A DNA stretch of 64,000 nt from Asparagopsis taxiformis (Eukaryota; Rhodophyta; Florideophyceae; Bonnemaisoniales; Bonnemaisoniaceae): contig JALQPE010000775.1 in the NCBI GenBank assembly GCA_030407315.1, forward strand, positions 1 through 64,000, in the 5' to 3' direction. Below are positions 18,016-51,538 of this stretch, in pieces. The stretch's first letter is position 1. Every line of letters begins with the position of its first letter. A program made the translations under genes and the position numbers. The notes beneath the pieces were generated by a model. It was not told the origin of the DNA and searched no databases. It saw nothing but the letters and a program-made list of their open reading frames with translations.

Positions 18016-18132
18016 ACAATATATCAGCGAAAACCGGGAGGGAAGAAATTACAGCGGATGGTAAATTCAGGGCCCATATCGGACCGTATTTTATTCTGTC
18101 ATTTACGAAACTGCTGGTATACAATACGTCTC

Positions 18133-18297
18133 TCTAGAATAGAAAATACATATCTGGTCAGAATAGGAAATAAATACCCGGTTAGAATAGGAAATACGTA
18201 TCCAGCCAGAATACGGAATATGTATCCAGCCAGAATACGAAATACGTATCCAGCCAGAATACGAAATACGTATCCAGCCAGAATACAAAATACCTGT
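18133..18297. repeat. 24-base tandem repeat in transposon leader
   Basis: About seven units built on GAATACGAAATACGTATCCA; copy 2 (51012-51160) has about five. The difference in copy number is the largest change between two otherwise near-identical copies. Confidence 0.8.
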
Positions 18298-30094: not shown

Positions 30095-30112
30095 CGGCCA
30101 GTAGTACGCGCG

Positions 30113-31518: not shown

Positions 31519-33104
31519 CGTCTGTGTTCTCGGAAATGGACGCGGACGTCCACAACCTCTAGTACACCTAGTATTACTAGGCGGACGTCCATGTTCTCCA
31601 GTATTTTTGGATGTCCGCCTAGAACCGGACGTCCATGCGGTCTAGTACGTCTAGTATTACTAGGGCGACATTCATTGTTTCTAGTACCACGGATGTCCCC
31701 CTCGGGATGGACTTCCGCCATGTCTATGTCCACCTAGGACGGGCGCCGGTTCAGAAATTCAAAAATTTCGACCCCAGAAATTTCTGCCGCCGTGCTCGAC
31801 TTGGATGTCCGCATCCATCACGGCGACCACTCTATTTTTCCTTGTCGGTCGACTCCAATTTTGTATTTAATTTTTTCATCCTCTGGCTCACACCCACTTC
31901 CAGTTGGTGCTCACCTCCCCCGTACTGTACCTCAAACACCCCAATACCACTCTAGCAAGCATTTTCAGCTACCTATCCCCGCTTCCACGGTGCACACCTC
32001 CATTCCATACCTACTTTTCTGCTCTACCGTACAGATTTCGTATAACCAGTCCTCATACTACCTCAGAATAGGGCAAAACACCCCCTATCTCCTCGACCAT
32101 GCTCTCCCCCATCACCTTTGAAACGTATTGTTCTTCAGTACCCTCTCTCCTCTACCCTCAACCCCTCTCCTTCGCCCTCTACACAAACTTCCCCTGCAGC
32201 TTACTCTCCCAAAACCTCTCACTCCCCATCCCGTACCCGACCTGCTCCACCCCTCCCTCCCTCAGCTGCTCCATGCCCCCACGCCATCCGCATCTTCGAT
32301 ACCGTATACACCACCACCACCGGCCCACGCTCCCGCTCCCCGCCGTCTCCCCAGAAACCTCCCCGCTCTGAACCACATATCAACCCCCCACTTCGCACCC
32401 TTCCTCCCACTCCCCTCCCTCCCCAAATACAATAACCCCCTTCTTCTCCATCACATCCCCACTCACCACAGCCAGAACAGACGCCACCCCCCTCCCCCTC
32501 TTTCTCCTCACTTTCCTAAAAACCCCTCCTCTCGGGGCCTTCAACCGCACCCTCCTACGGTCCCACCTAAACACCTCCTCCGCCCTCACTACCCCAGCAC
32601 CCTGCAGCGTCTCCCCAATCCCCATAATACGCTCGTCGGCGCTCCTCTCCGAATCACACTCCAATCTAAACCCGCACTCCGTACATTTCCATCTCCCCCT
32701 GTACCATCCCAAGATTCCATCCCCCCACAGAACACATCCCCAGACCACAGAAGAATTTTCTTCCTCTCATACCTCATCCTTAGAACCTCCATCAGCTCCA
32801 TGTAAATTTCGATGTAAATATTTTCTCTACTATGCAATCTCAAACATGTACGAGCCTATGACTTTCCGCTTTGTCAACCCTGAATATTGGTACTCATGTA
32901 TTCATAAAATAGGGCCACCCACATCCCTATCCCGTTCTGCAAGCTTTACAAACCACTAGACGCATACTCCACAACTATACAACAAACATTACTCGCTATT
33001 TCAGACGACGCGGTACACAAGTAGCGTAGTCTCAACCTTCCGTGACGCCTTCCCTGATGCGTACAAGTGCGAAACACGTCTAGACGCATATCATCAGTGA
33101 GTGC

Positions 33105-33225
33105 GGGAATTTTCGGCACAGGAGACGCTGGGCCACCAAATTGATTTTTCGGAAATTTTAGAATTTCTGGGCTCGCCAGCATTGCAATCGAGCTGGACAT
33201 CCACCGGACGTCCAGTAGTGTTCGT
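33105..33225 (+). repeat. Palindrome-bearing repeat, partial copy (R0)
   Basis: Matches only the last half of the fuller copies: GAATTTCTGGGCT, GCCAGCA, TGCAATCGAGCTGGACAT and CCACCGGACGTCCA. The hairpin part is missing. Confidence 0.65.
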
Positions 33226-33404
33226 CGTGAGAGAGTGGGGCGGGACCATGATGAAACAAGGACCAAGACCTGTCCCTGACGTGTTCAGCCTGAAATCGAC
33301 CCTTCGTAAGACGCGATTTTGGCTTACATTTGGTGCTTACAGACGCCAGTGATAGCCCCCGATCGGGGCAGCGGTCGGTTCCTGGGGCTGTTGTGGCCAA
33401 ATTA

Positions 33405-33635
33405 GACACCTTGATTTGAATTAAAATTTGGGCTATTCTCAAAAACATGCACATGTGAACATGTTTTTGAGATGGGGGTGTGCCGTACGGCACAATCGAC
33501 CGCCCAAATCGATGTTTTTTGCAATATTTTTCTGCCCGAAATATTACAATTTCTGGGCTGGCCAGCAGTGCAATCGAGCTGGACGTCCACCGGACGTCCA
33601 TTTCAGGTTGGTCGTGTATCGTGCACGTCCACACA
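33405..33635 (+). repeat. Palindrome-bearing repeat, full copy (R1)
   Basis: Begins near AGACACCTTGATTTGAATT, then a hairpin at 33438-33471 (12-bp stem CTCAAAAACATG, 10-base loop containing CACATGTG), a 14-base perfect palindrome GTGCCGTACGGCAC at 33480-33493, then AATTTCTGGGCTGGCCAGCA and GGACGTCCACCGGACGTCCA. Similarity to the inverted copy at 43750-43980 continues about 25 bases past GGACGTCCA. Confidence 0.85.
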
Positions 33636-33884
33636 TTGCCGGAAGCAAGTAGGCGATGAAGCACGTACAAACCCAATTGTTCTGCTATTTCTAGCATAGA
33701 CCATCGAGTCTAGAGATGTGAGGGAATCGTCCTGGAAATCATGCTCCAACCCACGAGGGAATGGACAATCTAGTTTGAAAGCATGGAACGGAAGTACATT
33801 ATAGTAGGTTCATAGATTGAAAGTGATAAAGGAGATGATTATATTCTCGATAATTGTTTACTAAAGTAGTAGTTGTTAAGCTAT

Positions 33885-36800
33885 CTAGCCGTCGGAAAAT
33901 TGTTCTTCCTCTTCGTCCCCACTATATTCAGGATCTCCCGGCAGAATAGGCGTTACTGGCAACTGTGGAGTTGAATAGCGCAAGACTAGTAGTTCATCGT
34001 GTGTGAGGGCTCTCCTCTTGCGAGGTTCTGTCGTCTTCATCCGCATCATTCCGAGCTGCCCTGTCTTCAGCCTACGATCTTTCTTGACCGGGATGGGAAC
34101 AACTGTCTTGTGGCGAACATTGACAGGTGCCGGTTGACTTTGCCTGGCAGACCGGCGCGGAGCATTGGGGATTACTTCTTCTTCGAATCCCAACCGCCTG
34201 ATGAAACCAAACGAAACATTGTCGGGAATCGGATACGACGCATTCCTGAAATACGTGTGATACCTCGTTGTCGTGTGTGACACAACTCTGTCGACATGCC
34301 CTGCCCCGGCATGTTGTACATGGCCGTGACCGATGAAGACTGAACGTGGCGGAACGATTACCTTCTTCAGCTTCATCGCCTTGGCGTACATATCTAATTC
34401 CAGCGCTTTGGAAAAGACGTACTTGTGGGACCCTGGACACACCTGTCGTCTCGTAAGTAGCAATGCCGACGCAAACGTAACGTCAGACAAGAGGTTGGTA
34501 GAGCTAGTGGGTAGTTAGGTTAGACACTAGAACCGGGAAGGTCACCGGCGCAGAGCCGCCGGAGCTAACGCTGCCTTCTCGCTCCGCGCCGGTTGTCCAC
34601 ACCTTTATTCAGTAAAATTCCGAAATAGTTCGGCGTCGCGCGAAAAGGCTAAAAGTTTCAAATTATCTCTAAAAGTCCAATTACAGCAATACTAGAGAGC
34701 TTACATGGCCAGCCTGCACTGTAAGGGTGATACAGGCTTACAGTATTCCCTGTTCTGACGTTCACTATACTACAACACTCAGTTAGGGAATGGGTCATCT
34801 CCGTTGGCAATAACAAAGTAACCCGGAAGTTGATCTTTGCGGTCGCGAGGAGGAACAGGGAAATCATTGTGTGGGACCTGCCGAGGACACCCCTTTCCCG
34901 TTATCAAAAACCGTCCCCCAGATGCCGGCATGACAAGTTTTTCTCCCGGTAAACCGCACTCCTCCAGCCCTATCAGCCGGACAAGGATTCCCAGCCACAC
35001 GTCCAGCAGGGCTCGCCGCGTCACAAACTTGAACCGGTCGATATGCGTCTCATCGTTCTCGGCATAGTCAACCAGGCAGTGGCGCGTAGACGTTAAGCGA
35101 GCCCTCCCCTCATTCCGGTTCTTCTCATCTGTTACATCGTCCCCAGTATTGACAATGGGACTCCACAGCTGCCGGTTCCCAGGGTCCTTGTGCACCTCCT
35201 CACCCTCCCATGTTCCCAAGAAGTACCGAAACAATTCCTGGTTAGGAATTTCTTCCATGAGACCCAAGTCAAATGGGAACTTGTCCGACGCATCGAGGTA
35301 GCTTACATCCGCGAAATTGTGCATCACCGTATACCCTCGCTCGTTGATTTCCGTTCGGCAATTGTGGAAGTACGCCATACCAGTGCTGGCCTCATACGAA
35401 TCCTTCCAGCTTGTAGACATTCGCGCAACCTGAGCGAAGTCCAGCCTCGAGGGTAGAAACGGCGATGTAGGCTCACACATCGCCTTGGCAGCCATCTTCC
35501 ACGCTGCGAAAAACATCGGATAGATGGTGTCGATCTCGAAAACAAGATGACGAGCCCGATGTTGTTCCGGAATATGCAGCCCCTCAAACACAGGGTCCAT
35601 CGCCACTTGCTTCAAATACCTCACCTCTCTGCCCTCCTCATCGATTTCCACAGTCTCCAATAACAACCTGAGCTCAATCGGGGGCAGAGAGCCAACCCTC
35701 ACCGATGCGATGACGTCCGCAGGACGCTGCGCCAGATGATGCCCTTCGGCTCGGTCTTTGGCTTCGAAATCGTCAGGAAGAGATGGCATACGGTCGTCGA
35801 ACAGGAGGTCGTCTTCAGAAGCAGAGTCACGAACGATGTAACCGTCTTCATCGACTTCCACTTCTTCCGGAACAGTGAATGTAATTGTCACTTCGCGGAC
35901 CCCCTTGCTTTCGACTTGGCCCTCGTCTGCACCGTTTTTGTCTTCCTCGTCCGAAGCGGTATGGACAGATTCTTGGTTGGAGGGAGTCGCACCAGCACCT
36001 TGGTTATCTTGGGGGACAATCTCAACGGCAGAATCGGGGGAACGGGCGGAGTCTTTGTCACCCTCATCACCGGAAACAGTGGCTTGTTGTTGATCGGTGG
36101 GTTTATCAACAACGGCCTGCTCTTCTTCCCCGGCGGATTGTTGTACCACAACCGGCTCTTCTTCCTCGAAGCGTGTGCTCCCCGTCGAGCGAAGTCGCTG
36201 TGAACGGCGGCGGATGCCATGCGAAGCAGGCTCATGTTCGACATTCCGCTGCTTCTTGTGAGTGAGTCTCACATTGGCAGCAGAAGGGCGGCGTTTGCGT
36301 CGAGCCTTAGTCTTCTTCTTCAATGTCGGATTGAAAAACTCTTTCAAGTTCTTTTTCAAATCCTGTAAACGCGTGGCTCTCCGTCGCATTCGAACCTCAC
36401 TGCTCCGGTCGTCCCCTCTATACATTGCAATGGCATTGGTGAGATGCCATTGCAACTCCTTCGGCTGCTTAACCGACCCAATTGCCATCTCTGTGCTCAG
36501 AAATGACTTGCGCATAATACTCTTTGGGCGCCCATACGCAGCGTACAGAGAATTTGCTATTGCAGTCACGCGACGGACGTATGTATAGAAGTCGTTCACG
36601 TCAAAGCGTCCATCCGGACGTCCACCATGAGCAGGGTTCAAGTACTCCGAAAGACAACGCAAGACGAAGACAAAGTTTTCTTCCAGCAACTCGCGCACTA
36701 TCTTGTGGTCCAGGCGCGTTATCCCAATCTCTTTGCGGCGCTCGGAATTGTTCAGCTCACGCAACACTTCGTCGAGAACAGGATGCTTCAGCGTTGCTAT

Positions 36801-38219
36801 AGCCCAACGCGTCCACCGCCGGGCCGTGTTCGTTAAATTCATCATCCCCATGAACTGCGCCTCGAAAAATGTTCGGATGACATCAGACTCACGCAAGTCG
36901 CCAGCGTTTTCCACGTTATTTGCAACAGCAATCGTACGGATGAACTGCTGGATGGACGACAAGATTCGAACCAGGGAGCGTTCCGTCAGTTGCGTCCCAG
37001 TCGTATGGTTCGACTCTGCACTCTTGTGGATGATCTCATGAGGCTGAAGATCACTGTTGTCCTTGCGGCGAAGGTAGTACACATCCAGAGGCTGAGTAAC
37101 CCAGCGCAAGCGGTTTGCGTCCTGTGGCAGCTTGGTTCTGTGCATACGGGTGAGGCGCGTGAAGTCATCGGCAATGCTATGCATAGCATTGAGACGATGC
37201 AGTCCGTCGATCACGGTCACGTTCGCATTGGCATGGAATTTGCCATTCTGGAACAGACGCGTGTCGGCGGGCAGATGCGTGTTCTGCGACCTCAGCACCG
37301 TCACAGTGATACGCGAAGAGCTCACATACCCCACAGCCAACATATTGTTGCGCAGGTCCTCCACGTGGTCTTCTTTCACATCCCGAAGGGTCACGGCCGG
37401 TTCCACTAGCTGCCTCACCAACACAGTCGCTCCTTCTCCGACGTAATCCGACGTCACAAACTTGGGCACCGTAATTTGCGTCCCCTGCTGCTCACGAATG
37501 CTTTCCGCCACCTCCGGTTCGTCGTCCACCTCGGTTACGTCCTGCGTAGTAGCTTCGGTGACGTTGGAGCGAGCAGGGTGCTTCGTGCCTCCACTGGAGG
37601 CTCTGGCAGAGCGAGCAGGGTGCTTCGTGCCTCCACTGGAGGCTCTAGCAGAGCGAGCAGGGCGCTTCGTGCCTCCCGAAACCGGGATGGAGCGTGCTGG
37701 ATGCTTCGTACCCCCCGAACCAGTGATTTCGCCTGCTGGACCGGTACTGGGCATCCGTCCCGAGCTGGCCTGGTTCGTCGCTGCGTTGAAGTTTGACGCT
37801 GCAGCAGGGGTACGAATGTCGCTAGGGCCATCCTCCGCAGCGGGGCGCATCATCCGAGTATCCCAAGGGTACAACGCCGCAGCGTATGCTCCACCCATCG
37901 TCTCCGGCGGTCCCTCGGCGCCATCAAACATGTACGGGAACGGGAGGTCCTTGAACTTGTCCTTAGTCGCAATGTTGCGCACGACGATATAGTCCGCCTC
38001 GTCGGTTTCCGGCAGCTTGTGGTTGTGCAGCGTGCGCGGAAGGCCAGCATCGCCACCAGCAGTGCTCACCGAAGCCGTCCCAATATGCACAGCCGCACCG
38101 TCCACGTCCGCAAACAAGTTGACATCGACGCCGCGCTTGAGTCCGCGCGACTCCGCTGACGCGCTCACTTGATCGCCGCAAACCGTTGAAAACAAACTGC
38201 TGAAATGCGTATCCGCCAT
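33885..38219 (-). CDS. ParB-like domain and 2-oxoglutarate/Fe(II) oxygenase fusion
   Basis: Exon 1 runs from ATG 38219 (1146 codons to 34779); a second open segment (about 34503-33885) completes the oxygenase. In order: N-terminus with 48-base tandem repeats (SGGTKHPARSARAS, about residues 165-220); ParB-like fold at about 260-420 (VKEDHVEDLRNNMLAVGY, then IDGLHRLNAMHS at about 335, matching the ParB DGxHR box); a basic block; an acidic linker at about 680-830; and an oxygenase with VPHNDFP (HxD, about 1118-1120). The second segment supplies CPGSHKY, VQHAGAG (distal His) and the 2OG-binding Arg in RYHTYF, and ends acidic. The splice between 34503 and 34800 is unresolved: an acceptor CCACTAG is visible, but no clear donor. 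Oxidation of a DNA base or protein is plausible; the substrate is unknown. Confidence 0.75.
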
Positions 38220-38499
38220 GGTTGTTGAGTTGGAAAGGAAAAGAGATGGTTGACGTTGACGTATTGAGTGATGTGGATGATATGTTTCACGTTAAGTTGA
38301 AGAATGGTCGTGAACGCCAATCGCTGGAAATAATAACACAATAGAACCGAAATTTTGTTAGGTACACACTTATCGTGACCGCTGGAATGCAAGAGAGGCA
38401 ATCGAGATGTGAGTGTCCGTTCGGAACGGGCCCGAGTCGGGCTCTCGAAACCTGACGAGGTGGCGTGAAGCAGGCAGTGTCCTTGATGTGCAACGTGTT

Positions 38500-38730
38500 A
38501 AAATTACAGCTGTCAAGCTAGGCAGCTTTTGGGGCGGCTGCGAGCACCCCTTTATCCGGGGGACACCCTGATTTGAATTAAAATTTGGGCTATTCTCAAA
38601 AACATGCACATGTGAACATGTTTTTGAGGTAGGGGTGTGCCGTACGGCACAATCGACCCGCCGAAATCAACGTTTTTTGCAATTTTCTTCTCACCGAAAT
38701 TCTAGAATTTCTGGGCTGGCCAGCAATGCT
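38500..38730 (+). repeat. Palindrome-bearing repeat (R2), upstream of the ParB/oxygenase gene
   Basis: Same hairpin and GTGCCGTACGGCAC palindrome as R1, truncated after GGCTGGCCAGCAATGC. It shares with R4 a further 65 bases on its left (AATTACAGCTGTC, GCGAGCACCCCT). It lies about 280 bases upstream of the minus-strand start at 38219, the same relative position R4 has to the gene starting at 44206. Confidence 0.8.
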
Positions 38731-39830
38731 ATAGCTATCTGCTCTAAACCGATTCTAACAAGCAGAAAGAATCCTCTCCTTCATGACGATGCTCTCGAAT
38801 ACAGTGCAATGCAACGGACTCCTTCAAGAGAACGACAAAGCATCGTCTTTTCGAAGGCATTTCCGTACAAAAAATAATCGAAACACATATTTGACTTTAA
38901 CCTAACAGCTATCGCGAGCACCGTACTCAGCTATATTTCCTCTGTAATTTCCTTCCTGCAACCAATCAATAGCCGCTTGGTCACAGGCTTGAAAGCCTTC
39001 CACTATCTGTCCTATCCATAGAAGAGGGTTTGATCCAGGCCTTGATGGGTGTGGAACCCGAGAAATTGAAAATGGAACATATTGCGACAGAGACGAGATG
39101 TCATTCTCTTTCATTTAATTTTTTCTAACAAGATTCTAAACGTCTACGGTGCGGAACAAACCCTATGTCGTCCGTCCGTTTACATCCCGGAGAGATGTGG
39201 ATGTGAAGTAAGACGCAGTGGTGATGTCGTGTAGATTCCCACAGACGGAGGTGGAGGAGGTGGCTACGGAGGAAGCCTGGAGAACTTCTCCGGTACTGAC
39301 ATCTCACATGTTGAACATGTGAGATGTCAGTACCCATGGATGAGAAGAAAAACATGTTCAGGTCCGGTTCGCATATTGTTGCCATTAACGGAGGCGGAGG
39401 AGGCGGCTATGGTGGAAGCCTGGAGAGCATGTGAGATGTCAGTACCCATGGATCACAAGAAGAACATGTTGAGGTGCGGTTCGGATATTGTTGCCATTAA
39501 CGGAGGCGGAGGAGGCGGCTACGGTGCAAGCCTGGAGAAGAATAGAATAGTCCTATACCCATGGATCACAAGAAAACGTTGTTGGGCTCCTTTTCGAAGC
39601 CCATTCGCCTCTTGAATAAATTTAGCACCCGAATCATATACGATTGCCGAGTTGACACCCCGTATGTCTCGTTGGTAGAAATAGCAGGGGTTCCACCACT
39701 CAGCTGGCGGGAAGTAACTGAATATGAGATATGGCTTAGCTCCCGCCAAAACCGATAGCTCTGGGCTCAGGTTCTCCAAATGTGGTTATACGAATGTGTT
39801 CTGACAATGCTAGAAGACGAACATCTGCAT
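38731..39830. other. Repeat-rich spacer with long palindrome, no supported gene
   Basis: Contains a 43-base perfect palindrome (39292-39334) and about three units of a roughly 112-base tandem repeat around 39240-39600, each with GGAGGCGGAGGAGGCGGCTA and AAGCCTGGAGA. In one plus frame these units encode Gly-rich GGGGGGYGxSLE. Short minus ORFs (38902-39114, 39519-39779) have protein-like composition but no recognised domain; they may be remnants. Confidence 0.5.
39292..39334. repeat. 43-base perfect inverted repeat, 21-bp stem, 1-base loop
   Basis: GGTACTGACATCTCACATG and its exact reverse complement flank a single G. Such long uninterrupted palindromes are unstable and rare, so it is either recent or maintained. 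Its right arm is also the start of the adjacent tandem unit (GAGATGTCAGTACCCATGGA). Confidence 0.9.
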
Positions 39831-40066
39831 CCTGATTTGAATTAAAATTTGGGCTATTCTCAAAAACATGCACATGTGAACATGTTCTTGAGATGGGGGT
39901 GTGCCGTACGGCACAATCGACCGCCCAAATCGATGTTTTTTGCAATACTTTTTTCTGCCCGAAATTGTAGAATTTCTGGGCTGGCCAGCAATGCATCTGA
40001 GCTGGACATCCCCATGTCCAGTGGCCGTCCGGATATCGCTAACCTGGTAGGCGTGATGCACGTGTG
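39825..40066 (+). repeat. Palindrome-bearing repeat (R3), upstream of the methyltransferase-SET gene
   Basis: Full hairpin and GTGCCGTACGGCAC palindrome, then GAATTTCTGGGCTGGCCAGCA and GCTGGACATCCC. It ends about 280 bases before ATG 40345, so R2 and R3 lie upstream of the two divergent genes. Confidence 0.82.
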
Positions 40067-40344
40067 ACAACCTATGTGACTGGCGGCCGTGCAGTACAAC
40101 ACTCAAAGACAGGGAATCACAATCTTTTTAAAATTTTTCTCTACCACGTATCCGTCACAACTTATTACCTACACCGGTTACGGGTTTCAAGACCTTTCCA
40201 GTGCTGTGTACCCGTATACTCTGTTCCGTTCGATATCAACCAGTGTTCCTCACGAAAGAGTGCAAACGTCACGAGATACGTCGTCAAATTTGACTGTCTC
40301 GCCGAGCGGTCGCCATCCTGTACCGAATTTCCACTCATTCCATT

Positions 40345-43300
40345 ATGACGAATAAGCGCAGGCGCAACAGCAATCCGATCGTTGACGACGCAACCGTGCC
40401 AATTCTGCGCGAACCCGCTAGCCCTTGGGAGGATTCTAGTGACATGGGTACACGTCGAAACGTAGGTCGCGCCGCCCGCGAAACTACTCTCGCTGGCAAA
40501 GACTTCCTCCGCCTCTTGCTGGATTTATTCGCCCACTCAAGTTTCGCAGACTTGACGGACAAGCCGGGAGGTTTCACATACGCGGACCTTGGCGCTTGGG
40601 TTGCGCAGGGCACGGAAGAACAATTTCTGGCGCTGCAAGGTCGACTCAGCATGGCCTTCAGCGGTCGTTCGAAGAATGCTGGAGTCGAGGCGGATGTTGC
40701 CGAAATCGTCATGGCAGAGATGAACGTTGAGCGAGCCAAGCAGATTGTTCGTCTGGCATTACCGATTGCCGAGTTTTCAAGACAGGATGAGCGTATCGGG
40801 CAATGGGTTGAGCACTGCATCCTTTCTGGGATCGTGCCGCAGACCTTCCTTATTGGATGTAACATGCTTCCTTCGCCACTACAGGCGCCGCAGCGCGGGG
40901 AACCAAGCGCCTTCGTTCTTGCTCCACCGGAAACGTTCGAGGTATTGATGTATTTCCAAGCGTTGTCTATCATCCGAAATCACAACAAGAACCTGCCGCG
41001 TCGCCGAATAGGCGATGCGGCCGAAGAGGGGAACGAAGCCGCACGCGTCCCAGCCCATCGGAAAAGCACTAATCGAGCTTGTTACGTGGTTCAAGTTTTA
41101 TACCATGCTTGGACCGATGTGGCCTTCGCCGCAAAGTTTTCCAGCTTCGAAGAGTTGATGGCGCCGTACATCATTTTCGACAGCAGTGAGCATTGGTTTG
41201 ACGTGCTCGATGAAGGTCTATTCGCACCGATGGAGCAGAAGCTAGATCTCTACCACGACAAAGCTCCCCTATCTCATCCTGATGGATATGGTGGAAAAGT
41301 AGAGACAAGAACCAGTGCGCAGCACAGTGCATTTAGGGACCTTGTGAGGAAGTTCTTCGACCGGTTGCAGTTTCTTATCGTCAACCCGGACCTGTACACC
41401 TGGCCGGAGTCCGACCGCTGGGGGGCGCTGGAAATATACTTGTCAAGCGGAAATCCGGACAAGCTGCCAGCGTACTTTGACACCCTCGACGAAGACGTTA
41501 TGGCTGTCCTCCGCCCGGCACCACAAGCCGCGGACGCAGAAAAGGTCCCCAAGCCGGTTGATGACACTCCCACTCGTCGCAACACAGGAGGGAGAGGTTT
41601 GGTTCCGTCGACAAGACACACAACCAGGCTTCAACTTGGACCTGGGAGGACCAGTCTTACTGCCCAAGGGCCGTCTCCCCCGTCACCGTCACCCCATGCG
41701 ACAGAAGAGCAGGAAAGTGAAGGGCAGGCTCTCGCAAAGGACTTTCTTTCGAAAATGAGTCAGTATTGCCGGGTGTACGACGTCCCTTTCGAAGATTTGG
41801 TCAGTGCCGACGAGAGCCGAGAACACGTGCCCATCACGGGCAACGTTCAGCTCATTCTGACTGATCCGCCCTACAATGTTCGTCGTAAGAGGAACGATTC
41901 CAACTCTTCGTACGACAGGCTAACTGCAGAAGATATGCAGGCTAGCATCGAAGTGTTTGACGAGCTGTTGCGCCCCGGTGGCCACGGCATCGTGTTCTGC
42001 TCCGTTTTGCAGTTCTACGAATGGTTCCATTACTTGGAAACGTACAAAGGACCGCAGTCAGAAGGCCCAACCGATGCTGCTGCCAGTGATGACGGGTCGG
42101 ATGAAGAAGAGGTTACGTCCATGAATTCGGACTCCGAAGCATCGCAGCACAGTGGCGAAGAAAGTGCGGATGAGGAGGAGGAGGACGAGGAGGAGGAGGA
42201 CGTCGTTCGGAATTCAGTTTTCTTCGTTGACGAGGTACCTCTGTTGTTTGTCCGACTACCTGGGCACCTCTATCAAATGCCGGGGCGGAAGAGGTACCAA
42301 CGCATGAACATGGCAGAGGTCGCTATCCACTTCTGGAAGCGAGGTGTTCCGTTCAAGACTGGAAGCGAGATGGTGGCCTATAGGAACCACGGATACATGG
42401 ACGGCACGTACCCGGCGTGGTGCAACGTCACCATCAATATGCCCGCCATCGATTCGAATGAGATGGTGTGGCGAACAAGGAGCACAACCGGTGCTACGGT
42501 CAGAGTTCGTGCAGAGCAGAAGAGCGTCGCTCTCATGATGGAGTTGATCAGCCAGCATTCACAGCCTGGTGATATTGTTGTCGATCCATTCTCTGGCACT
42601 TTCGCAACGGGAAAAGCAGCTATGAGCTTGCCTGAGCACCGTGTTTTCGTCGGCAGTGACATGGACAAATTGTGTCTGGCACGATCGCTTCCAAAGCTGT
42701 GTGCAGTCATGTCACGTGTAATTCTTTCAAACAACACTGACATGAGGGTCACGACAGAAGCGAAACAGAGTGCTGAGAAGTTCTTGGCGTCCCCCTCTGT
42801 CACGATGCGTACGCAGAGGGAACGCAGGATCATCGATCCCCCACCTGGCCTTCCCCTGTACCAGAGGTTCCCGAAATATATTCGGCAGTACTTCTGGCAG
42901 CTGTGCCCAGAGTCGATTGCGTCGCACGAGCACATGGAAAAACCGGTACATTATTGGCCACCTTCCCTGCGCCGCTGGTTGCAAACTGAAAACCCTCGCG
43001 TGATGCGGGCACACAATTGTGTTGCGAAAAAATTGAGCGTTCGACCATCGCTGATTAAGCATCCAAATGCAGGAAGAGGGCTCTTCGCTGAACAGACATT
43101 TAATGTTGGCGACGAAGTATGTGCATACTACGGAACTGTTGTGTACTCTGATATGAGCAAGGAGTCGATGAGGTTCGCGTACGGAGAGGGTCACATGGCG
43201 ATAACGAAGGAAACATTCTTGATGTATGCCATCAAGCTGTATGCAACAGCGGAGGACGACGAAAACATCGAGCATCCAATTTGGATTGTTCCGGCTCCGT

Positions 43301-43545
43301 TCTGTTCGGCGCAGTTCATCAACGACCCGCGGTATTTGCGAGGTGAGGACACTCCGGCGGAAGACACCAGGCGGATGGCCAACGTCGAGTTTGTCGAGAA
43401 CTACAGCAGCGGTTCGACGGGGAAGAAGCTCAAGGCGAAGGACCTAGAAAATCCGAAGATCATTGTAGTACGTGCAATCCGCGATATCCGTCCAGGGCAG
43501 GAGCTCTACGTTCATTATGGGACAGCGTTTAGAGCATGGAATTAG
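40345..43545 (+). CDS. Beta-class DNA amino-methyltransferase fused to a SET domain
   Basis: One uninterrupted 1066-residue ORF from ATG 40345. Residues 1-480: no recognised domain, basic N-terminus, helical. About 500-800: Rossmann methyltransferase with motif IV TDPPYNVRR (about 506-513), LLRPGGHGIVFC, then after an acidic insert (about 580-622) motif X-like QKSVALMMELISQHS and motif I DPFSGTFATGKAA (about 746-758). The order IV before I and the DPPY box are those of N6-adenine or N4-cytosine methylases (N6_N4_Mtase type). About 900-1062: a SET domain, AGRGLFAEQTF...AYYGTVV, QFINDPR, NVEFVEN and DIRPGQELYVHYG. The usual SET NHS is changed to IND, so lysine methyltransferase activity is uncertain. 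Expected to act in the nucleus on DNA and perhaps histones. Confidence 0.82.
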   Translation: MTNKRRRNSNPIVDDATVPILREPASPWEDSSDMGTRRNVGRAARETTLAGKDFLRLLLDLFAHSSFADLTDKPGGFTYADLGAWVAQGTEEQFLALQGRLSMAFSGRSKNAGVEADVAEIVMAEMNVERAKQIVRLALPIAEFSRQDERIGQWVEHCILSGIVPQTFLIGCNMLPSPLQAPQRGEPSAFVLAPPETFEVLMYFQALSIIRNHNKNLPRRRIGDAAEEGNEAARVPAHRKSTNRACYVVQVLYHAWTDVAFAAKFSSFEELMAPYIIFDSSEHWFDVLDEGLFAPMEQKLDLYHDKAPLSHPDGYGGKVETRTSAQHSAFRDLVRKFFDRLQFLIVNPDLYTWPESDRWGALEIYLSSGNPDKLPAYFDTLDEDVMAVLRPAPQAADAEKVPKPVDDTPTRRNTGGRGLVPSTRHTTRLQLGPGRTSLTAQGPSPPSPSPHATEEQESEGQALAKDFLSKMSQYCRVYDVPFEDLVSADESREHVPITGNVQLILTDPPYNVRRKRNDSNSSYDRLTAEDMQASIEVFDELLRPGGHGIVFCSVLQFYEWFHYLETYKGPQSEGPTDAAASDDGSDEEEVTSMNSDSEASQHSGEESADEEEEDEEEEDVVRNSVFFVDEVPLLFVRLPGHLYQMPGRKRYQRMNMAEVAIHFWKRGVPFKTGSEMVAYRNHGYMDGTYPAWCNVTINMPAIDSNEMVWRTRSTTGATVRVRAEQKSVALMMELISQHSQPGDIVVDPFSGTFATGKAAMSLPEHRVFVGSDMDKLCLARSLPKLCAVMSRVILSNNTDMRVTTEAKQSAEKFLASPSVTMRTQRERRIIDPPPGLPLYQRFPKYIRQYFWQLCPESIASHEHMEKPVHYWPPSLRRWLQTENPRVMRAHNCVAKKLSVRPSLIKHPNAGRGLFAEQTFNVGDEVCAYYGTVVYSDMSKESMRFAYGEGHMAITKETFLMYAIKLYATAEDDENIEHPIWIVPAPFCSAQFINDPRYLRGEDTPAEDTRRMANVEFVENYSSGSTGKKLKAKDLENPKIIVVRAIRDIRPGQELYVHYGTAFRAWN

Positions 43546-43749
43546 GTTCACGAAAGATGTTTTCATTTCGACTACAAATAAAGCTACGTTCCAGAGTTGA
43601 AGTATATCATATAATGCAGCATGTCCAGCCACCATTAGTCCAGGGTGAAACCTATTGAGCAGTACTCGCCTGTCAAAAACCAATCGTTCACACTCCAGGT
43701 GCACTTCGTCCGAGCAGTGAACCTGACTGCTTGGATGCTGTTATGCGTG

Positions 43750-44022
43750 CAGATGCAAAATACACGACCAAGTTGAAATGGACGCCCGGTGGATGTCCAG
43801 CTCAGTTGCATTGCTGTCCAGCCCAGAAATTCTACAATTCAGGGCAGAAAAAAATATTGCAAAAAACATCGATTTCAGCGGGTCGATTGTGCCGTACGGC
43901 ACACCCCCATCTCAAAAACATGTTCACATGTGCATGTTTTTGAGAATAGCCCAAATTTTAATTCAAATCAGGACGTCTTCCGGACATAGGGGTGCTCGCG
44001 GCCTAGCTCGACAGCTGTAATT
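43750..44022 (-). repeat. Palindrome-bearing repeat (R4), inverted copy
   Basis: Reverse-complement copy with hairpin and palindrome near 43890-43950. On its gene-proximal side it shares the extra 65 bases with R2 (AGGGGTGCTCGCGGCC, GACAGCTGTAATT). It lies between the end of the methyltransferase-SET gene and the start of the accessory gene at 44206. A CGTCTTCCGGAC at 43974 resembles the first bases of the Plavaka-like terminus and is a candidate left end for copy 2. Confidence 0.8.
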
Positions 44023-44205
44023 GTACCTCATTAAATACTGTTGATGACTGCCTACCGTATACAATCTGGGCTGTTGGCGTATTCTCCGGTACTTGACCTG
44101 ACCTGAACGTTCATCGCAGACCGTTGTGGTTACCGACACTATACAGCAATCTTTTTTGTATCTCGTGCAACTCAATCGTTCCATCGCTTCCGGGAAGGCT
44201 TCATT

Positions 44206-46489
44206 ATGCCGCCGCGTATTGCGAAGAAAGCTCCAAAGCCTCCGGGCCTCCAGAAAAACCGGTCAGCAGCTGCTGTATCGAGTGCCCGACAATCCCGTGC
44301 GAAGAAGCGGTCTGGGCCTACCGGCAGCATTGAACCGCGGTCCGGTAGTCGCAAGACGGACCGGCGCAGAACTGGGGATCCGCAGCGAGAAAGTGAGGAA
44401 GGAGGAACGGCGCGGAGAGAGATGGGGTTGACCGAGGCAAGCGTGCTCGCAGGGACAGTGAACATCATGATGATGACATGATAGTGGCTCAAAACATGTT
44501 GGAATTGCGGCAGAGTGCTATGGCAAAGGTAGTTCCTCCCGGGTTGGCAGATGCGGAGGTGCTGCAGACGGAGTCCCAGCCGGGGGTTCGCGAGACACTG
44601 GAGGCTGTGACCCCCACTGCGCCAACTATGCCGAGTACATCAGCCCCAGCAGGTAATGCAGTCAGGGACCCGAGGATAGCGGCAAGGGATGTTGTTTCTG
44701 AGCAACGTTCACAGGATGCCAACTATCATCGGCGTCAGGTGGTACTGAGGGGAGAGAGCAGCCGGAGTGCGGGCCTCGTCACAACAGACTGTCATTGGTG
44801 CCAAATATGCGCGTAACGCCCCCGCGACGTCAGGCTATTGCCGATGGAGGACATCATATTCCCGATAGCGTGGGAGATGGGGGGACGGTGAGGGCAGAGA
44901 GGTTGCATCCGCCGGAATCCATCGATTTAATGGCGAGTCGCATCAATGCGCAGAAGAAGAAGATCGCGGAGCTGGAGAAAAAAGTGTTTAGCCAGGACAT
45001 AGCAAACAAGGCGCTCACCACGGAGATAGTTGCGTTGGAGGCTAAGGTGAAGACTCTGCAGGCGGAAAATGCCAGCCTTACTGCAATTGCGAGAACAGGT
45101 AGAATCAGTGATCACGGTGGCGGTAAGTCGAAAATACAGAAAGCCATTCCTGTGAAATACCTTGGAGTTCTTAGGGCGGTTGAGGAAAACCTGACAAAGT
45201 GGTGCAAGAACGAGACTATGGAGCTGGACCCTATAGCGGAACAAACGCAGAGACGTTGGACTGGACGTACCATCGAGGTAGAGCCGGTAGAAGGGGCACT
45301 TTGGAGCGAAAACGGTGTAGGATATATTGCTACCCCTCCGGGCTATATCATCAAGAATCTGCAGTGGTATACACCTTCGTACAGGGACGAGAGTGATCTG
45401 CTGAATGACTTGGTGCGACACGTACTGCGTCAAAGTCCGTGGTGTGATGTGTTTTCCGATGAGGAGCAGCGTGTGTGCTGTCAAGAGGCTGTGGCGGGGA
45501 GCAAGGAATTGAAAGTGAAGGTGACGCAGAAACTGTCCGACGTGATGAGTGCACGGAAGCGTAATGCGAGGGACAGATTGTTCGGTTCGCTGGGGTACAC
45601 GAAATTAATGTCTAGATGCACGATGCTGACGACGCGAGCTGAGATGGACGAGCGAGAGGATCAAAAGCGCGAAGCGTCTGAGAAGCTTTTGAAACGGGAA
45701 AGCAACGGTGATTTGGATATGGGGAGGTGGCGAACGGCACCGTTCTCAGAGCTGCGATACAGCAAAGGCATGGTTCCTGACAGCTTCGAAATGGAAGTGA
45801 ATGGTGATGCATGGTTTAACAACCGAGTAGCTGTGAATGTGCTGGACATCTTCAGGGGTTATTCGATACGACCAGAACAAGTAATGGACATAGAGACGAG
45901 CATACTAACGCTGGCGCGCCTGGATGCTTGGCTAGTGACTACTGTGGAGTGTTTGGATGAACCGAAGGGGAAAGGAGGTGCACGGCAGAAGGAGTTTACA
46001 AGGCGGTACAGTCAATATGTGGGGGTAGCTTTTCAGCAATTAGTTGGTATGGTGGTGTACTGCATGTCTTGTCTCCAAGGCTCGCAAGCAAGGGAAGAAA
46101 CGGACGTTGTCGAGAGCGAACAGCGGACTAGTGCACAGTCACGGCATGTGTTTGCAAGCCGTACTGTGACGAGAGAGGCTGTTGAAGTGTGGCAAAGCGG
46201 AGAGGGGTCTGGAATTGTTCATGTCGTTGATGATGTAAACCGCTGCTCATCACTTGTTCTAGTGTCCGAGGATTGGATTCAATCGCATATTACGTCAAAC
46301 CTCGGTGCTGTAATGGATTGTGTGATTGCGCAAGGACTAATTGGCGCAGAACTTTTCGTCGTTGACCCATATGCTGGACACCTGAGTGCAAACCTGAATG
46401 TCGAAATCAATGCCCCACAGTATGGGGGCATGGAGCGGCGCCATGCAGCCACTGCTGATAACGGTTTTGGCGTAATGGAGGATGGTTGA
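44206..46489 (+). CDS. Coiled-coil protein convergent with the transposase, unknown function
   Basis: The main open segment is 44795-46489 (starting from a TTG, so not a true start). Upstream are two short open segments in other frames: 44206-44481, ATG, basic and Ser/Arg-rich (MPPRIAKKAPKPPG), and 44478-44816. A GT-AG intron of about 93 bases at about 44741-44833 would join HRRQ to AIADGG in phase; the earlier junction is unresolved. A coiled coil lies at about 44925-45110 (INAQKKKIAELEKKV, EIVALEAKVKTLQAENASL). After that comes a folded-looking region with no domain I recognise. It ends 77 bases from the tail-to-tail transposase gene, which suggests a second transposon protein, for example a subterminal-repeat binder, but copy 1 is cut before this point, so linkage is unproven. 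Confidence 0.6.
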
Positions 46490-46566
46490 AATTAGTGCAG
46501 TAAATGTGACGTTGACTAGAAGGCTTATCATGTAGTACATTATCAATAGAGTGCTGCGATTTAGAT

Positions 46567-49500
46567 TTATTCTTCTTCATTATCATCTGTGAACTGGTAA
46601 TCAGTGTTGGTGTAGAAGCGGTTGAGATAGAAACGGTGGTCCGACCAGTGCATTTGTTTCGTAAATGGCTTGACTGGAAAGTTACTTCGTACGATGTGCA
46701 CGGTGCCAGATATAGTAGATGCAGGAATGAGGTCAAACCAAGGACCACCTGCACTGTGGGATGCAGTGTCATTGCTGTCAACGGATCCGTTGTCCGGGTC
46801 CCATGTGGACCACTTTAAACAAATGCACCCAAGTGATTTTTCCACAGCGGTTTTTGGGGCAAAGCAGGTCATATACTGAACGAAAGCGAGTTCTACAGGT
46901 TGAAACAGGTTTGGAGACTGCAGGCGTACCAGTGCCAGGACGCGCCCTACCCATATGGTTCTGTAGTCATCGGCAGTTCCGGAGATGACGACAAAGGAGT
47001 ACTGCGATCTCTTTGCGGGGCCGAATGATGAAGTTGCAAAGACGCGCTGCTGCTTGTGCCTCGACACGTTTGTGGGGCGAAGCATGCCACTGTGCGGGTC
47101 AAAGTCGTCGGCATCTGGGACGTACCCTCCCATGACGTAGGCGGACTTTACCGCGGTGACGGAAATGTCCATGTCATGTATTGGAGGGCCTTCTGCCGTG
47201 GCGCGCAGTCTAGCGAGGGTGAGGAACGCTTGTGCAGCTGTGTCACCGAGTTGCTGGAATAGCGTTATGGTGCCAGACGGGAACGAGGAGTTGTGCAGAG
47301 GCAAAAGAGTGGCAGGATCGGGCTGTCCGTCGATATCTGCAACGAGGAGGGTTGCATCGGGCAGCAGGGAGGCAAAGTCGTGCAGTGCAACGGTGAATCC
47401 GTCGCGAACGAGTACTGCACCGTCTGTGGGCGATATCATGCGTGCGTTTCCCAATGTGTTCGATGGGGTATGACCAGTTGGAGTGGCCAAGGAGAATTCC
47501 ATGTGGCGAATAGTCTCTTCCATGGCTGTGGAGCGCCTTCGAGAGGTTTTCCTATAACTCTGTTTGAACAGAAGATGCGAGTGTTCGTAGGGGCCTGCAT
47601 CAATGTGTTCCAGGGCGCCATATCTCTGCAAGTCACCGGGAAGATGGTCTAGAAGATGGAACTTGAAAGTTTTGAGACCTGTGGTGTGGAATGGGCCGAG
47701 GGTGGAGAGCATTGATTGTTTGAAATAGGAAATGGAGTTCTGGAGGCTTTCTAGTTCGGCGGCAGTCCAGTGCTTGATGCGACCGCGTTTCATGACCCAT
47801 GCGACGAGGTCAGAGTATTGCGTGCAGATGGAAGTGAGGGGGGCTGTATCTACTTCGTCACAGCATGTGTCAATGAATGCTGCGATGAAAGGGAACACCA
47901 TGTCGACATGGTGATAGTCTTTGGCTGCGAGCATGCCGCGTATGCCGTCCTCCGTGAAGAGGCCGTTCAAATTGGTGCCCTTCTCACCCTTGGAGAAGTC
48001 GACATGAAGACCGGTGATGTAGTAGTCGCGTTCGATAGCGGACAGAATGCTGTTTGAGCCGGCGAGGATGGATTTTTTCACCTTCTTGAAGGTGCGAGGT
48101 GTCCCGGAATGGGAGGCAGTGGTGGTGGTGAGGTCTGGGGAGCTGAGGCGGTGGACAATGCACTGTTTGATGAGCTTTGAGATGCCGAGGTGGAGATTGT
48201 GCAGAGGCTCGAAGGAGAAAATGTTGTAGGGGTCTAGGGGACTGTTGGTGGGTAAAAGAGCGGTCGATTCGAGGACAGAGTGTTGTTCGAGGAGGGAGAG
48301 AGCTTCGAGCGGAGCAGTTGTATGCTCCTGAGCGCTCTCTTGGCGTGCAGAGCGTGTATCATCGAGGGAGCGGGGCTGGTGTGGCGCGCTGGATTCAAGT
48401 TGAGTGGCGGGGATGTAGCAGCGGTGGCAGGGATGTGTGGTGGTAGTGCTGTTGCGAGTGCATGACAGCTCTTTGGCCTCTGGAAAGTCGCAGCAATAAT
48501 TGGCTAGGATGGGAAAGCATTGGCGGGCAGTTGCAGTGGAGTCTGTGCAGGGGAACCCGGAAGAGAACGCGGTGGATAGGGACGAAAACACTTTTTCGAG
48601 TGCTTTATGAAGAATATCAATTTTGCGAGCGCGACTAGCAGAACTAGAGGTTGTCGGCATTTCATCACCGAACAAGGCGTTGGACGAAGGGTTAACAATG
48701 TACGGAAGATACCCGACGATGGTGAGGCCGGTACGGATGCAGTGGCGACGGAGGGGGGCGGAGAAGTTGAGCAGTGTGACGTGTATGGGGTATGCGACGA
48801 TTGCGGAGCTCTTGAGGCTTGTGCTGCTCTTGTCGGAGTACACTTGGAGGAGGCCGGCAAAGGAGGAAGGTGTGGGATCAGTTTCCTCTGCCCATACGAC
48901 CTGTGGATCTTCCGAGAGCTGCACGCGCTGTCTAGTAACCTGGTGCAGCGTTTTCGCGAATTCTGTGTGTAGGGGATGAGAAAATATTGCGGTGCCGTCT
49001 GGGGCGGTCTGTGGGGAGGGGTGGAAGAGAGTATTTTGGTCGTTAGCCAGTGCTAACTGCCTGCGGAGCATGTCGACTGGGTCGCGGAGGTACAGCTGTG
49101 CCGAGTACTTACCAGTTTTGTCTGGAATGATGTGGCTCTTGTAACCTTCGGTGCGGAAATGTGTTTCGACCATGGAAGCGGTAACGTGGCGACATTCTTC
49201 TACGGTGCGAACGGCGCTGTTGAACTTTTCTAGGGAGAATGCGGGGTCTTGTAGGATGGTGATGACTTCGCTCACGCGGCCAGCGCCGGCCTTGTACTCG
49301 AGGGTTGTGAGACTGGCGGCGAGGGATTGCACGAGGAGGTCTGCGCGGGAGGGGGTTGAGGTTGGTGGCAGTGGAGCGTCACAGGGTGAGTCGCTGGAGG
49401 AAGCACGACCAGATTCTGGGTCTGGGGAGCTGGGTTGCGGGGAATCATGGTCGCCGTTTCGAGCAGGCTCATGGGTGACGGCAGGGACACGAGCGTTGTT

Positions 49501-49608
49501 GAAATGTTGGGGAGAGGGTTTGAAACGGTAGCGACACGTTCGCTCATGCAGCGCGAGCGCATAAGCATCTACGCAGTAGTAGAAGCACCCTTCATACTTG
49601 CATTCCAT
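46567..49608 (-). CDS. Plavaka-like (CACTA-related) transposase, intact 1013 residues
   Basis: ATG at 49608, stop at 46567, no intron. It starts with a zinc-finger-like CKYEGCFYYC...HERTC, as is usual for this group, then a Ser/Pro-rich linker. The RNase H-fold part includes LLQVYSDKSSTS, AYPIHVTLLNFSAPLRR and IVGYLP, matching the Plavaka pattern of YSDxT, (Y/W)P(I/V)Y(V/L)T(I/L)GN and GYLP. A Cys-rich segment (NYCCDFPE, CHRCYIPAT) follows, then FEPLHNLHLGISK (the LHxxHLG box) and a helical C-terminal part (FKFHLLDHLPGDLQRYG, EHIDAGPYEHSH). Copy 1 differs by few residues, implying recent duplication or gene conversion. Expected to cut and paste elements with matching termini in this window. 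Confidence 0.82.
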   Translation of the reverse strand: MECKYEGCFYYCVDAYALALHERTCRYRFKPSPQHFNNARVPAVTHEPARNGDHDSPQPSSPDPESGRASSSDSPCDAPLPPTSTPSRADLLVQSLAASLTTLEYKAGAGRVSEVITILQDPAFSLEKFNSAVRTVEECRHVTASMVETHFRTEGYKSHIIPDKTGKYSAQLYLRDPVDMLRRQLALANDQNTLFHPSPQTAPDGTAIFSHPLHTEFAKTLHQVTRQRVQLSEDPQVVWAEETDPTPSSFAGLLQVYSDKSSTSLKSSAIVAYPIHVTLLNFSAPLRRHCIRTGLTIVGYLPYIVNPSSNALFGDEMPTTSSSASRARKIDILHKALEKVFSSLSTAFSSGFPCTDSTATARQCFPILANYCCDFPEAKELSCTRNSTTTTHPCHRCYIPATQLESSAPHQPRSLDDTRSARQESAQEHTTAPLEALSLLEQHSVLESTALLPTNSPLDPYNIFSFEPLHNLHLGISKLIKQCIVHRLSSPDLTTTTASHSGTPRTFKKVKKSILAGSNSILSAIERDYYITGLHVDFSKGEKGTNLNGLFTEDGIRGMLAAKDYHHVDMVFPFIAAFIDTCCDEVDTAPLTSICTQYSDLVAWVMKRGRIKHWTAAELESLQNSISYFKQSMLSTLGPFHTTGLKTFKFHLLDHLPGDLQRYGALEHIDAGPYEHSHLLFKQSYRKTSRRRSTAMEETIRHMEFSLATPTGHTPSNTLGNARMISPTDGAVLVRDGFTVALHDFASLLPDATLLVADIDGQPDPATLLPLHNSSFPSGTITLFQQLGDTAAQAFLTLARLRATAEGPPIHDMDISVTAVKSAYVMGGYVPDADDFDPHSGMLRPTNVSRHKQQRVFATSSFGPAKRSQYSFVVISGTADDYRTIWVGRVLALVRLQSPNLFQPVELAFVQYMTCFAPKTAVEKSLGCICLKWSTWDPDNGSVDSNDTASHSAGGPWFDLIPASTISGTVHIVRSNFPVKPFTKQMHWSDHRFYLNRFYTNTDYQFTDDNEEE

Positions 49609-51011: not shown

Positions 51012-51538
51012 GCTGACAGGTATTTTGTATTCTGGCTGGATAGATATTCCGTATTCTGACTGGATACATATTCCGTATTCTGGCTGGATACGTATTTCCT
51101 ATTCTAACCGGGTATTTATTTCCTATTCTGACCAGATATGTATTTTCTATTCTAGAGAGACGTATTGTATACCAGCAGTTTCGTAAATGACAGAATAAAA
51201 TACGGTCCGATATGGGCCCTGAATTTACCATCCGCTGTAATTTCTTCCCTCCCGGTTTTCGCTGATATATTGTATACTGGATGTCGGGTCCTAGGATCCC
51301 GCTGTATGTACTAGAGAAAGTAGATGTCGGGCCCTAGTATTCCGCCATATGTACTAGAGAAAGTGGATGTCGGGTCCTAGTATTCCGCCGGACGTACTAG
51401 AGAAAGTGGACGTCCGCATCCAAAAAATTTTTATTTTTTTTGGACGCGGACGTTCATTTGTTCTAGTAAATCTCGGGGCCGACTAGGACCCGTGCTAGAG
51501 AGACTGGACGTCCGCGTCCATTTCCGAAAACAAAGACG
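51012..51538. repeat. Terminal, subterminal and 24-base repeats of copy 2
   Basis: Inverse of 17707-18297: 24-base units at 51012-51160, subterminal units with GTACTAGAGAAAGT at about 51308, 51353 and 51397, two GGACGTCC blocks and the terminal CCGAAAACAAAGACG at 51524-51538. Confidence 0.75.

What the first reader, a model, noticed from the sequence alone, without database searches (positions are those of the whole stretch)
33405..44022. Divergent two-gene modification cassette surrounded by palindrome-bearing repeats
The ParB/oxygenase and methyltransferase-SET genes are head-to-head (starts 38219 and 40345). R2 and R3 sit upstream of them, and R1 and R4 lie beyond their 3' ends, R4 inverted. 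R2 and R4 also share 65 further bases next to the following gene start, implying common promoters. A system that writes DNA marks, oxidises or binds them, and carries its own palindromic sites could protect the transposon from silencing or mark it for transposase. This is the best candidate for an undescribed system in the window.
Basis: inference. Interest (0 to 1): 0.93.

Follow-up and report, generated by a model that had tools for sequence, protein, structure and literature searches.

The report
Seaweed jumping gene carrying epigenetic enzymes
The two genes and the repeats belong to a 20,000-base jumping gene, present in roughly a thousand copies in a red alga, that carries an enzyme joining a DNA-marking part to a histone-marking part and so may protect itself from being silenced.

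Summary
The divergent genes and R1-R4 are the middle of a 20.0-kb DNA transposon (31519-51538) with 34-bp terminal inverted repeats and a Plavaka transposase; 7 of 14 copies checked show a 2-bp target duplication. The host is a red alga, by assembly statistics closest to Asparagopsis taxiformis. Probes count about 990 methyltransferase-SET, 939 ParB-gene and 1014 transposase copies, 1177 left ends and 8237 palindromes. 51 of 72 methyltransferase-SET copies have the ParB gene within 15 kb, always on the same side. The methyltransferase-SET protein is solid: a CcrM-like DNA amino-methyltransferase fused to a SET domain, with 58 relatives found (one named, Chondrus crispus) and pN/pS 0.34 between copies. 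The "ParB" and "oxygenase" labels rest on motifs only; profile tests failed or were inconclusive, and the window copy is broken by a 331-bp insertion. New: 17 of 51 pairs have the methyltransferase-SET segment inverted, and the one junction read is a chimera of two R boxes. Best mechanism (inferred): self-directed anti-silencing with R boxes as shared control sites, analogous to VANDAL/VANC and TET-carrying transposons. New variant of a known kind.

The parts
31519..51538 (.). whole transposon copy, 20,020 bp, lying next to a gypsy-type element on its left
   Evidence: termini CGTCTGTG... / CGTCTTTG... at the two ends; 11 other left ends in fetched loci begin at the same base with different flanks
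31519..31552 (+). left terminal inverted repeat, 34 bp
   Evidence: exact 34-mer 1177 times in the genome, 0 in reversed control
51505..51538 (-). right terminal inverted repeat (a few mismatches to the left one)
   Evidence: right-end 25-mer 1364 times, 0 in control (a few places lie close together, so some ends may count twice)
33407..33531 (+). R1 box (palindrome 33480-33493); in other copies part of a variable-number array beside the left end
   Evidence: ParB-to-left-end distances fall in steps of about 450 bp
33885..38219 (-). gene of the motif-level 'ParB-like + 2OG-oxygenase-like' protein, split in this copy into ORFs 34779-38219 (1146 aa) and 33885-34490 (201 aa)
   Evidence: intact 1318-aa relative L005:4667-8620:-; in that relative VIDGLHRLNAM begins at 322, HNDF 1103, PGSHK 1136, VQHAG 1175, YHTYFR 1194
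34444..34774 (.). 331-bp insertion absent from the five other copies examined that cover the site (L005, L007, L009, L016, L017)
38536..38692 (+). R2 box (palindrome 38637-38650), 418 bp from the ParB-gene start
39828..40011 (+). R3 box (palindrome 39901-39914), 444 bp from the methyltransferase-SET start
40345..43545 (+). methyltransferase-SET protein, 1066 aa: helical N-domain about 38-390, CcrM-like DNA amino-methyltransferase about 470-800, SET about 900-1060
43763..44003 (-). R4 box (palindrome 43889-43902), inverted, 3' of methyltransferase-SET and about 0.9 kb upstream of the third ORF as called
44795..46489 (+). third ORF, 564 aa (start uncertain), coiled-coil matches near the N-terminus, no family above cut-off
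   Evidence: pooled pN/pS 0.39
46567..49608 (-). Plavaka transposase, 1013 aa
   Evidence: PF18759 E 3.3e-24, 86.2 bits against cut-off 26.3; probe in 1014 places at up to 2 mismatches

Best explanation
A 20-kb Plavaka-type DNA transposon of a red alga carries, beside its transposase, an epigenetic cargo. One protein joins a CcrM-like DNA adenine methyltransferase to a SET lysine methyltransferase (shown by sequence and predicted structure; activity not shown). A second protein has ParB/DGxHR-like and 2OG-oxygenase-like motifs (motif level only). Near-identical R boxes sit upstream of three of the four genes and in a variable array beside the left end (shown). Inferred mechanism: the cargo is recruited to the element's own R boxes, which act as shared operators, and writes permissive marks there (6mA on DNA, a methyl mark on histone) and/or removes repressive DNA marks. 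The copies thus stay transcribed and competent to transpose in a genome that silences repeats. R boxes in opposite orientation also recombine, inverting the methyltransferase-SET segment in a third of the pairs examined; its upstream R box keeps the same orientation to the gene (by geometry), so the flip need not disrupt expression.
For: Element: termini, 2-bp duplications at 7 of 14 copies checked (binomial P 8.6e-6 at 1/16), transposase, about 1:1:1 probe counts 990/939/1014 at up to 2 mismatches. Recent activity: 43 of 43 scored methyltransferase-SET copies full length without stops, 99-100% identical (only the best 43 of 4141 first-look candidates were scored, so this is the best tail). 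Selection: pooled pN/pS against the window copy 0.34 methyltransferase-SET, 0.51 N-terminal 1146 codons of the ParB gene, 0.39 third ORF, 0.66 transposase (few copies, one comparison for the transposase). Fusion conserved: N6_N4_Mtase in 43 of 43 and SET in 33 of 43 proteins scanned; DPPY Asp 57 of 59, motif-I Asp and Gly 59 of 59, SET Asn 58 of 59, SET Tyr 51 of 59. R core conserved in 48 distinct boxes, palindrome exact in 41. Parallels in print: VANC proteins bind tandem repeats with short motifs in VANDAL non-coding DNA and cause loss of silent marks (PMC10398659, abstract and passages); fungal Plavaka elements carry TET/JBP (PMC12730594); 6mA lies with H3K4me3 at active genes (PMC12695648, abstract and passages).
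Confidence: 0.5

Rival explanations
1. The cargo regulates transposition itself: the methyltransferase marks R boxes or subterminal repeats so that the transposase distinguishes freshly replicated copies (as Dam does for Tn10, and as methylation affects CACTA TnpA binding; both recalled), and the second protein is an accessory end-binding factor.
For: R arrays lie beside the left end and vary in number; non-autonomous elements of 10-12 kb keep both ends and R boxes but gave no tblastn match to cargo or transposase inside (C11, C12, C20 elements: L010-L012, L018, L021-L024), so ends plus R boxes may suffice for mobilisation in trans.
Against: R boxes also sit upstream of three genes, which transposition alone does not need; a SET domain has no obvious use in it.
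Confidence: 0.2
2. R boxes are recombination sites and the system controls orientation or copy number: inversion between opposed R boxes flips the methyltransferase-SET segment, driven by a site-specific or ParB-like protein or by ordinary homologous recombination.
For: 17 of 51 pairs are flipped. In L007 the junction R box is chimeric: left half 97.9% to array R boxes, right half 95.5% to the window R4. R3 folds as nested inverted repeats (z -2.86).
Against: 13 of 17 flipped pairs share one spacing (4287-4305), so one event that then spread by transposition explains most; spacing steps can come from R-array changes. About 180 bp of near-identical inverted repeat is enough for host recombination. 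No recombinase family was matched in the element's ORFs that I scanned.
Confidence: 0.15
3. Passenger genes: host or foreign genes hitchhiking in a successful transposon, with no role in its life cycle.
For: Large transposons capture genes (recalled); non-autonomous copies exist without them.
Against: pN/pS below 1 among copies, 43 of 43 scored copies intact, SET fused to methyltransferase in relatives at 21-37% identity.
Confidence: 0.12

Closest known systems
TET/JBP-carrying DNA transposons of fungi, including Plavaka (Kojima 2025, PMC12730594; abstract, passages and two sections seen)
   Same: Plavaka transposase, TIRs, short target duplications, an epigenetic enzyme as cargo, proposed anti-silencing role
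   Different: Red algal host; termini CGTCTGTG..CACAGACG instead of TGT..ACA or CATCA..TGATG; cargo is DNA amino-methyltransferase-SET plus an unassigned protein, no TET/JBP shown; R boxes upstream of the genes
VANDAL transposons with VANC anti-silencing proteins (PMC10398659, abstract and passages; PMC5735166, search listing only)
   Same: Short motifs repeated in the element's own non-coding DNA, in arrays that expand and contract; a cargo protein as candidate binder
   Different: MuDR elements (so named in PMC12730594, passage) and a different protein; no binding shown here; a writer enzyme is added
HarbingerS and MuDR elements of oomycetes carrying a SET histone methyltransferase gene (named in PMC12730594, passage)
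   Same: DNA transposon encoding a SET histone methyltransferase
   Different: The passage mentions no DNA methyltransferase; here one polypeptide holds both
N4CMT of bdelloid rotifers (PMC8885841, abstract and passages)
   Same: Bacterial-type amino-methyltransferase in a eukaryote fused to a chromatin domain (chromodomain); close structural match
   Different: A gene captured from bacteria that deposits 4mC at transposons as part of a silencing route; here a transposon gene with DPPY motif and a SET writer instead of a reader
Plavaka giant repeats of Amoebidium appalachense (PMC11244446, one section and passages)
   Same: [quoted passage not shown] the recombinase genes among them hit distant lineages including red algae
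   Different: Cargo described as tyrosine recombinases; a methyltransferase-SET fusion is not mentioned in what I saw (term 'SET domain' occurs 0 times)

Membership tests
Plavaka DNA transposon | Plavaka transposase domain | tested here: met
   PF18759 86.2 bits, cut-off 26.3
Plavaka DNA transposon | terminal inverted repeats on copies with different flanks | tested here: met
Plavaka DNA transposon | 2-3 bp target site duplication | tested here: met
   2 bp at 7 of 14 copies checked, none at the other 7 (window and C11 among them); never longer than 2 among the 10; one empty site seen (AT, C20 element in another copy's third ORF)
PlavakaA or PlavakaB subgroup (fungal) | termini TGT..ACA or CATCA..TGATG | tested here: not met
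   termini CGTCTGTG..CACAGACG; so filed as Plavaka-type, in neither subgroup
beta-class DNA amino-methyltransferase (CcrM-like) | catalytic motif before SAM motif in sequence (DPPY, then FxGT), fold of CcrM/RsrI | tested here: met
beta-class DNA amino-methyltransferase (CcrM-like) | methylates adenine (or cytosine N4) in DNA | not testable with these tools
   DPPY favours adenine (recalled); needs assay
SET lysine methyltransferase | SET domain with conserved Asn and Tyr | tested here: met
   above cut-off; Asn 58 of 59, Tyr 51 of 59
SET lysine methyltransferase | histone substrate | not testable with these tools
   -
ParB/Spo0J | match to canonical ParB N-domain profile | tested here: not met
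   hhalign probability 0.09-0.66% in 14 windows; SopB control 94.8%; single-sequence model too poor to use (pLDDT 38)
2OG-Fe(II) dioxygenase, PhyH type | HxD..H..R triad in a DSBH fold | tested here: inconclusive
   motif order present and HND aligned with the PhyH HxD, but score 19.1 against maximum 20.4 in 100 shuffles; three held-out PhyH members scored 15, 32 and 86%
TET/JBP dioxygenase | TET/JBP domain | tested here: inconclusive
   no Pfam hit up to E 10; no TET/JBP profile comparison made
VANC-type anti-silencing | sequence-specific binding of own repeats and loss of silent marks | not testable with these tools
   -

The most novel reading that the evidence does not exclude
A transposon that carries its own two-layer 'active gene' writer: one polypeptide that puts adenine methylation on DNA and methylation on histones, guided to about 8000 self-encoded palindromic R boxes by a partner protein that may also strip repressive DNA marks, with an invertible writer segment. 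It would mark itself as an expressed gene rather than merely erase silencing.
Probability: 0.3. Interest if true: 0.93.

Novelty: new variant of a known kind. Interest (0 to 1): 0.78.

Why it matters
Transposons are known that carry enzymes thought to erase DNA methylation; one that writes DNA and histone marks with a single protein would change the picture of the arms race over silencing. In PMC12695648 (18 unicellular eukaryotes; red algae are not mentioned in its text) robust 6mA was found only in species with AMT1. A CcrM-like enzyme spread by a thousand-copy transposon would be a separate, mobile source of amino-methylation in eukaryotic DNA. Existing PacBio reads of the likely host could test this directly.

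Tried and rejected
Free-standing two-gene cassette: rejected, since termini and Plavaka enclose it. One 34-kb element spanning the long inverted arms 17707-22626 / 46726-51538: rejected; the left arm looks like the right end of another copy, and sequence also found elsewhere begins at its inner edge 22626 (L020). Fungal host (my first guess from Plavaka): rejected by phycobilisome genes, 13 matches, 11 of them in one contig.

Led nowhere: protein search of the ParB gene with the whole window ORF (8000 candidates scored, none; the same whole-protein setting also missed the 58 methyltransferase-SET relatives, so this is no evidence of absence); PDB searches of its pieces; PHROGs, NCBIfam and Pfam scans; AlphaFold on the ParB-like region alone; PhyH alignment in viral contigs; SopB relatives in plasmids (too alike). 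Counting independent inversions from spacing classes was given up, because R-array changes give the same steps.

Literature: among the papers listed by searches (titles and abstract starts, at most 20 per search; several searches matched many more) I saw none describing a transposon with a methyltransferase-SET fusion or a Plavaka element in red algae; only open-licence PMC papers were searched.
Full report
Observation. The two ORFs, their head-to-head order and the four R copies are as described. The palindrome occurs exactly four times in the window, with one further 2-mismatch match; shuffles give 0.30 on average at up to 2 mismatches. R2 and R4 do share a longer stretch (157 nt, 90%, inverted).

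What it belongs to. The whole genome (141.5 Mb, 3156 contigs) holds the palindrome 8237 times against 0 in the reversed control. Most of the 16 loci first fetched around it carry pieces of the same genes, and copies align to the window up to a sharp edge at 31519, where each meets different DNA (11 other left ends). The edge is a terminal repeat, CGTCTGTGTTCTCGGAAATGGACGCGGACGTCCA; its inverted partner ends at 51538. Between them, 20,020 bp, lie the ParB-labelled gene (-), methyltransferase-SET (+), a third ORF (+) and a Plavaka transposase (-, PF18759, E 3.3e-24). The left end occurs 1177 times exactly, a right-end 25-mer 1364 times exactly. At up to 2 mismatches a transposase probe occurs 1014 times, a methyltransferase-SET probe 990 and a ParB-gene probe 939. 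Each has 0 in its control. If all were full length they would make up about 20 Mb, some 14% of the assembly; this is an upper guess, since shorter copies exist.

Transposition. An element copy in contig C20 sits inside another copy's third ORF with AT duplicated, and the window shows the uninterrupted site. Of 14 copies whose two flanks I read, 7 have a matching 2 bp (C20 and C12; 5 of 10), expected 1 in 16 each, P 8.6e-6. The 7 without a match include the window copy (AT/AG) and one in C11; mispaired ends or recombination between copies may explain them. All 43 methyltransferase-SET copies that the tool scored, the best of 4141 first-look candidates, are full length, stop-free and 99-100% identical, so the burst is recent.

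Linkage. The tool lists the first 100 places of each probe. On contigs up to C266 there are 72 methyltransferase-SET places; 51 have the ParB gene within 15 kb and 21 do not. All 51 lie on the same side; 34 are divergent as in the window and 17 have methyltransferase-SET flipped. From copy density I would expect about a fifth to have a partner that near if unlinked (estimate, not simulated). The transposase follows on the expected side and strand at 6128-6319 bp in 19 of the 34 and at 7369-7747 bp in 5 of the 17; three pairs had a transposase within 15 kb on another side or strand. The left end lies 4.8-6.9 kb from the ParB gene in 47 of 75 places (contigs up to C198), in steps of about 450 bp, near the R-array unit (387 and 500 bp in L016). 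The right end lies downstream of methyltransferase-SET in 15 of 54 places (11 of them at 9.6-10.6 kb), or upstream in 8 of 54 (5 of them at 11.7-12.3 kb).

Inversion. L007 holds a flipped element. Its R box at the 3' end of methyltransferase-SET is 97.9% identical to some array R boxes left of the palindrome, where R4 copies give 84-86%. On the right it is 95.5% identical to the window R4 and 93.8-94.6% to three other R4 copies (85.0% to L010's), where array boxes give 58-86%. This is a recombinant R box, so the flip arose by recombination inside opposed R boxes. 13 of the 17 flipped pairs share one spacing, so one event followed by spread may explain most. One junction was read.

R box. In 48 distinct boxes (54 found) from the window and 21 fetched loci, a core of about 95 bp is nearly invariant. 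The palindrome is exact in 41 of 48 (mean column conservation 0.99), and an adjacent 36-bp inverted repeat averages 0.995; 29 of 287 14-bp windows are more conserved than the palindrome. R3 folds as nested inverted repeats (z -2.86; 0 of 200 shuffles as stable). 49 of the first 50 listed palindromes lie within 8 kb of an element marker; the exception, in C7, lies beside a methyltransferase-SET fragment (L020). No random background was run; markers are dense enough that roughly half of random points would qualify by my estimate.

The other protein. In an intact relative (L005) it is 1318 aa with VIDGLHRLNAM at 322 and HNDF 1103, PGSHK 1136, VQHAG 1175, YHTYFR 1194, which recall ParB/DGQHR and PhyH-type oxygenase motifs (family motifs recalled). 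No profile search supports either name. Against a profile of 80 bacterial ParB proteins it scored below 1% in all 14 windows, while SopB scored 94.8%. Against a six-member PhyH profile the HND aligned with HxD, but the score (19.1) did not exceed the best of 100 shuffles (20.4); three held-out PhyH members scored 15, 32 and 86%, so that test is weak. Pooled pN/pS is 0.51 for the N-terminal part and 1.63 for the C-terminal 186 codons. In the window the gene is broken by a 331-bp insertion.

Host. Phycobilisome genes, 13 matches, 11 in contig C469, make it a red alga. Size and contig number are near those of Asparagopsis taxiformis L6 (142.47 Mb, 3308 contigs, 33.48% DNA transposons; PMC12115072, passages and two sections). 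This species name is an inference from statistics.

Mechanism. Shown: a young, abundant transposon; a conserved methyltransferase-SET fusion under purifying selection; conserved R boxes upstream of three genes and in an array. Inferred: R boxes recruit the cargo, which writes permissive marks on the element. The frame comes from three known cases: VANC proteins bind tandem motif repeats in their own transposons and cause loss of silent marks (PMC10398659); fungal transposons, Plavaka among them, carry TET/JBP (PMC12730594); 6mA accompanies H3K4me3 at active genes, with robust 6mA only in AMT1 species (PMC12695648). Rivals are control of transposition, an R-box recombination system, and passengers. 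All need wet or read-kinetics data.

Verdict. A Plavaka-type transposon with new cargo: new variant of a known kind, high interest, mechanism about even odds.

Noticed in passing
window 17707-22626: Right end of what looks like a second element copy in inverted orientation, 99% identical over its inner part (20124-22626) to 46726-49228, with its own transposase frame (840 aa).
   Followed up: partly
window 22626; L020 about 3071: The same sequence beginning TGTAGGACCAGCC adjoins different DNA at both places, as the end of another mobile element (perhaps an LTR) would; two long frames 23586-26580 follow.
   Followed up: no
window 28661-31518: Gypsy-type remains (Pfam rve and Chromo in ORF 28661-30094) that reach the left edge of the 20-kb element at 31519; the frames next to the edge were not scanned.
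   Followed up: no
L010-L012, L014, L018, L021-L025: Non-autonomous derivatives of about 10-12 kb that keep both ends and R boxes, with a different core.
   Followed up: partly
window 14716-15940 and 60947-62172: Direct repeats 46.2 kb apart, 97-100% identical in pieces, outside the element.
   Followed up: no
window 2137-2814 and 8061-8813; 12642-13457 and 54636-55193: Two pairs of related genes; by eye C2H2 zinc-finger-like and membrane-protein-like (not scanned).
   Followed up: no
L016 (C15:1500-11000): Left-end region present twice in the same orientation, each ending at its own left terminus next to different DNA.
   Followed up: no
window 39236-39596: Tandem G-rich repeats (112 bp unit) between R2 and R3; in flipped elements this spacer seems to have moved with methyltransferase-SET.
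   Followed up: partly
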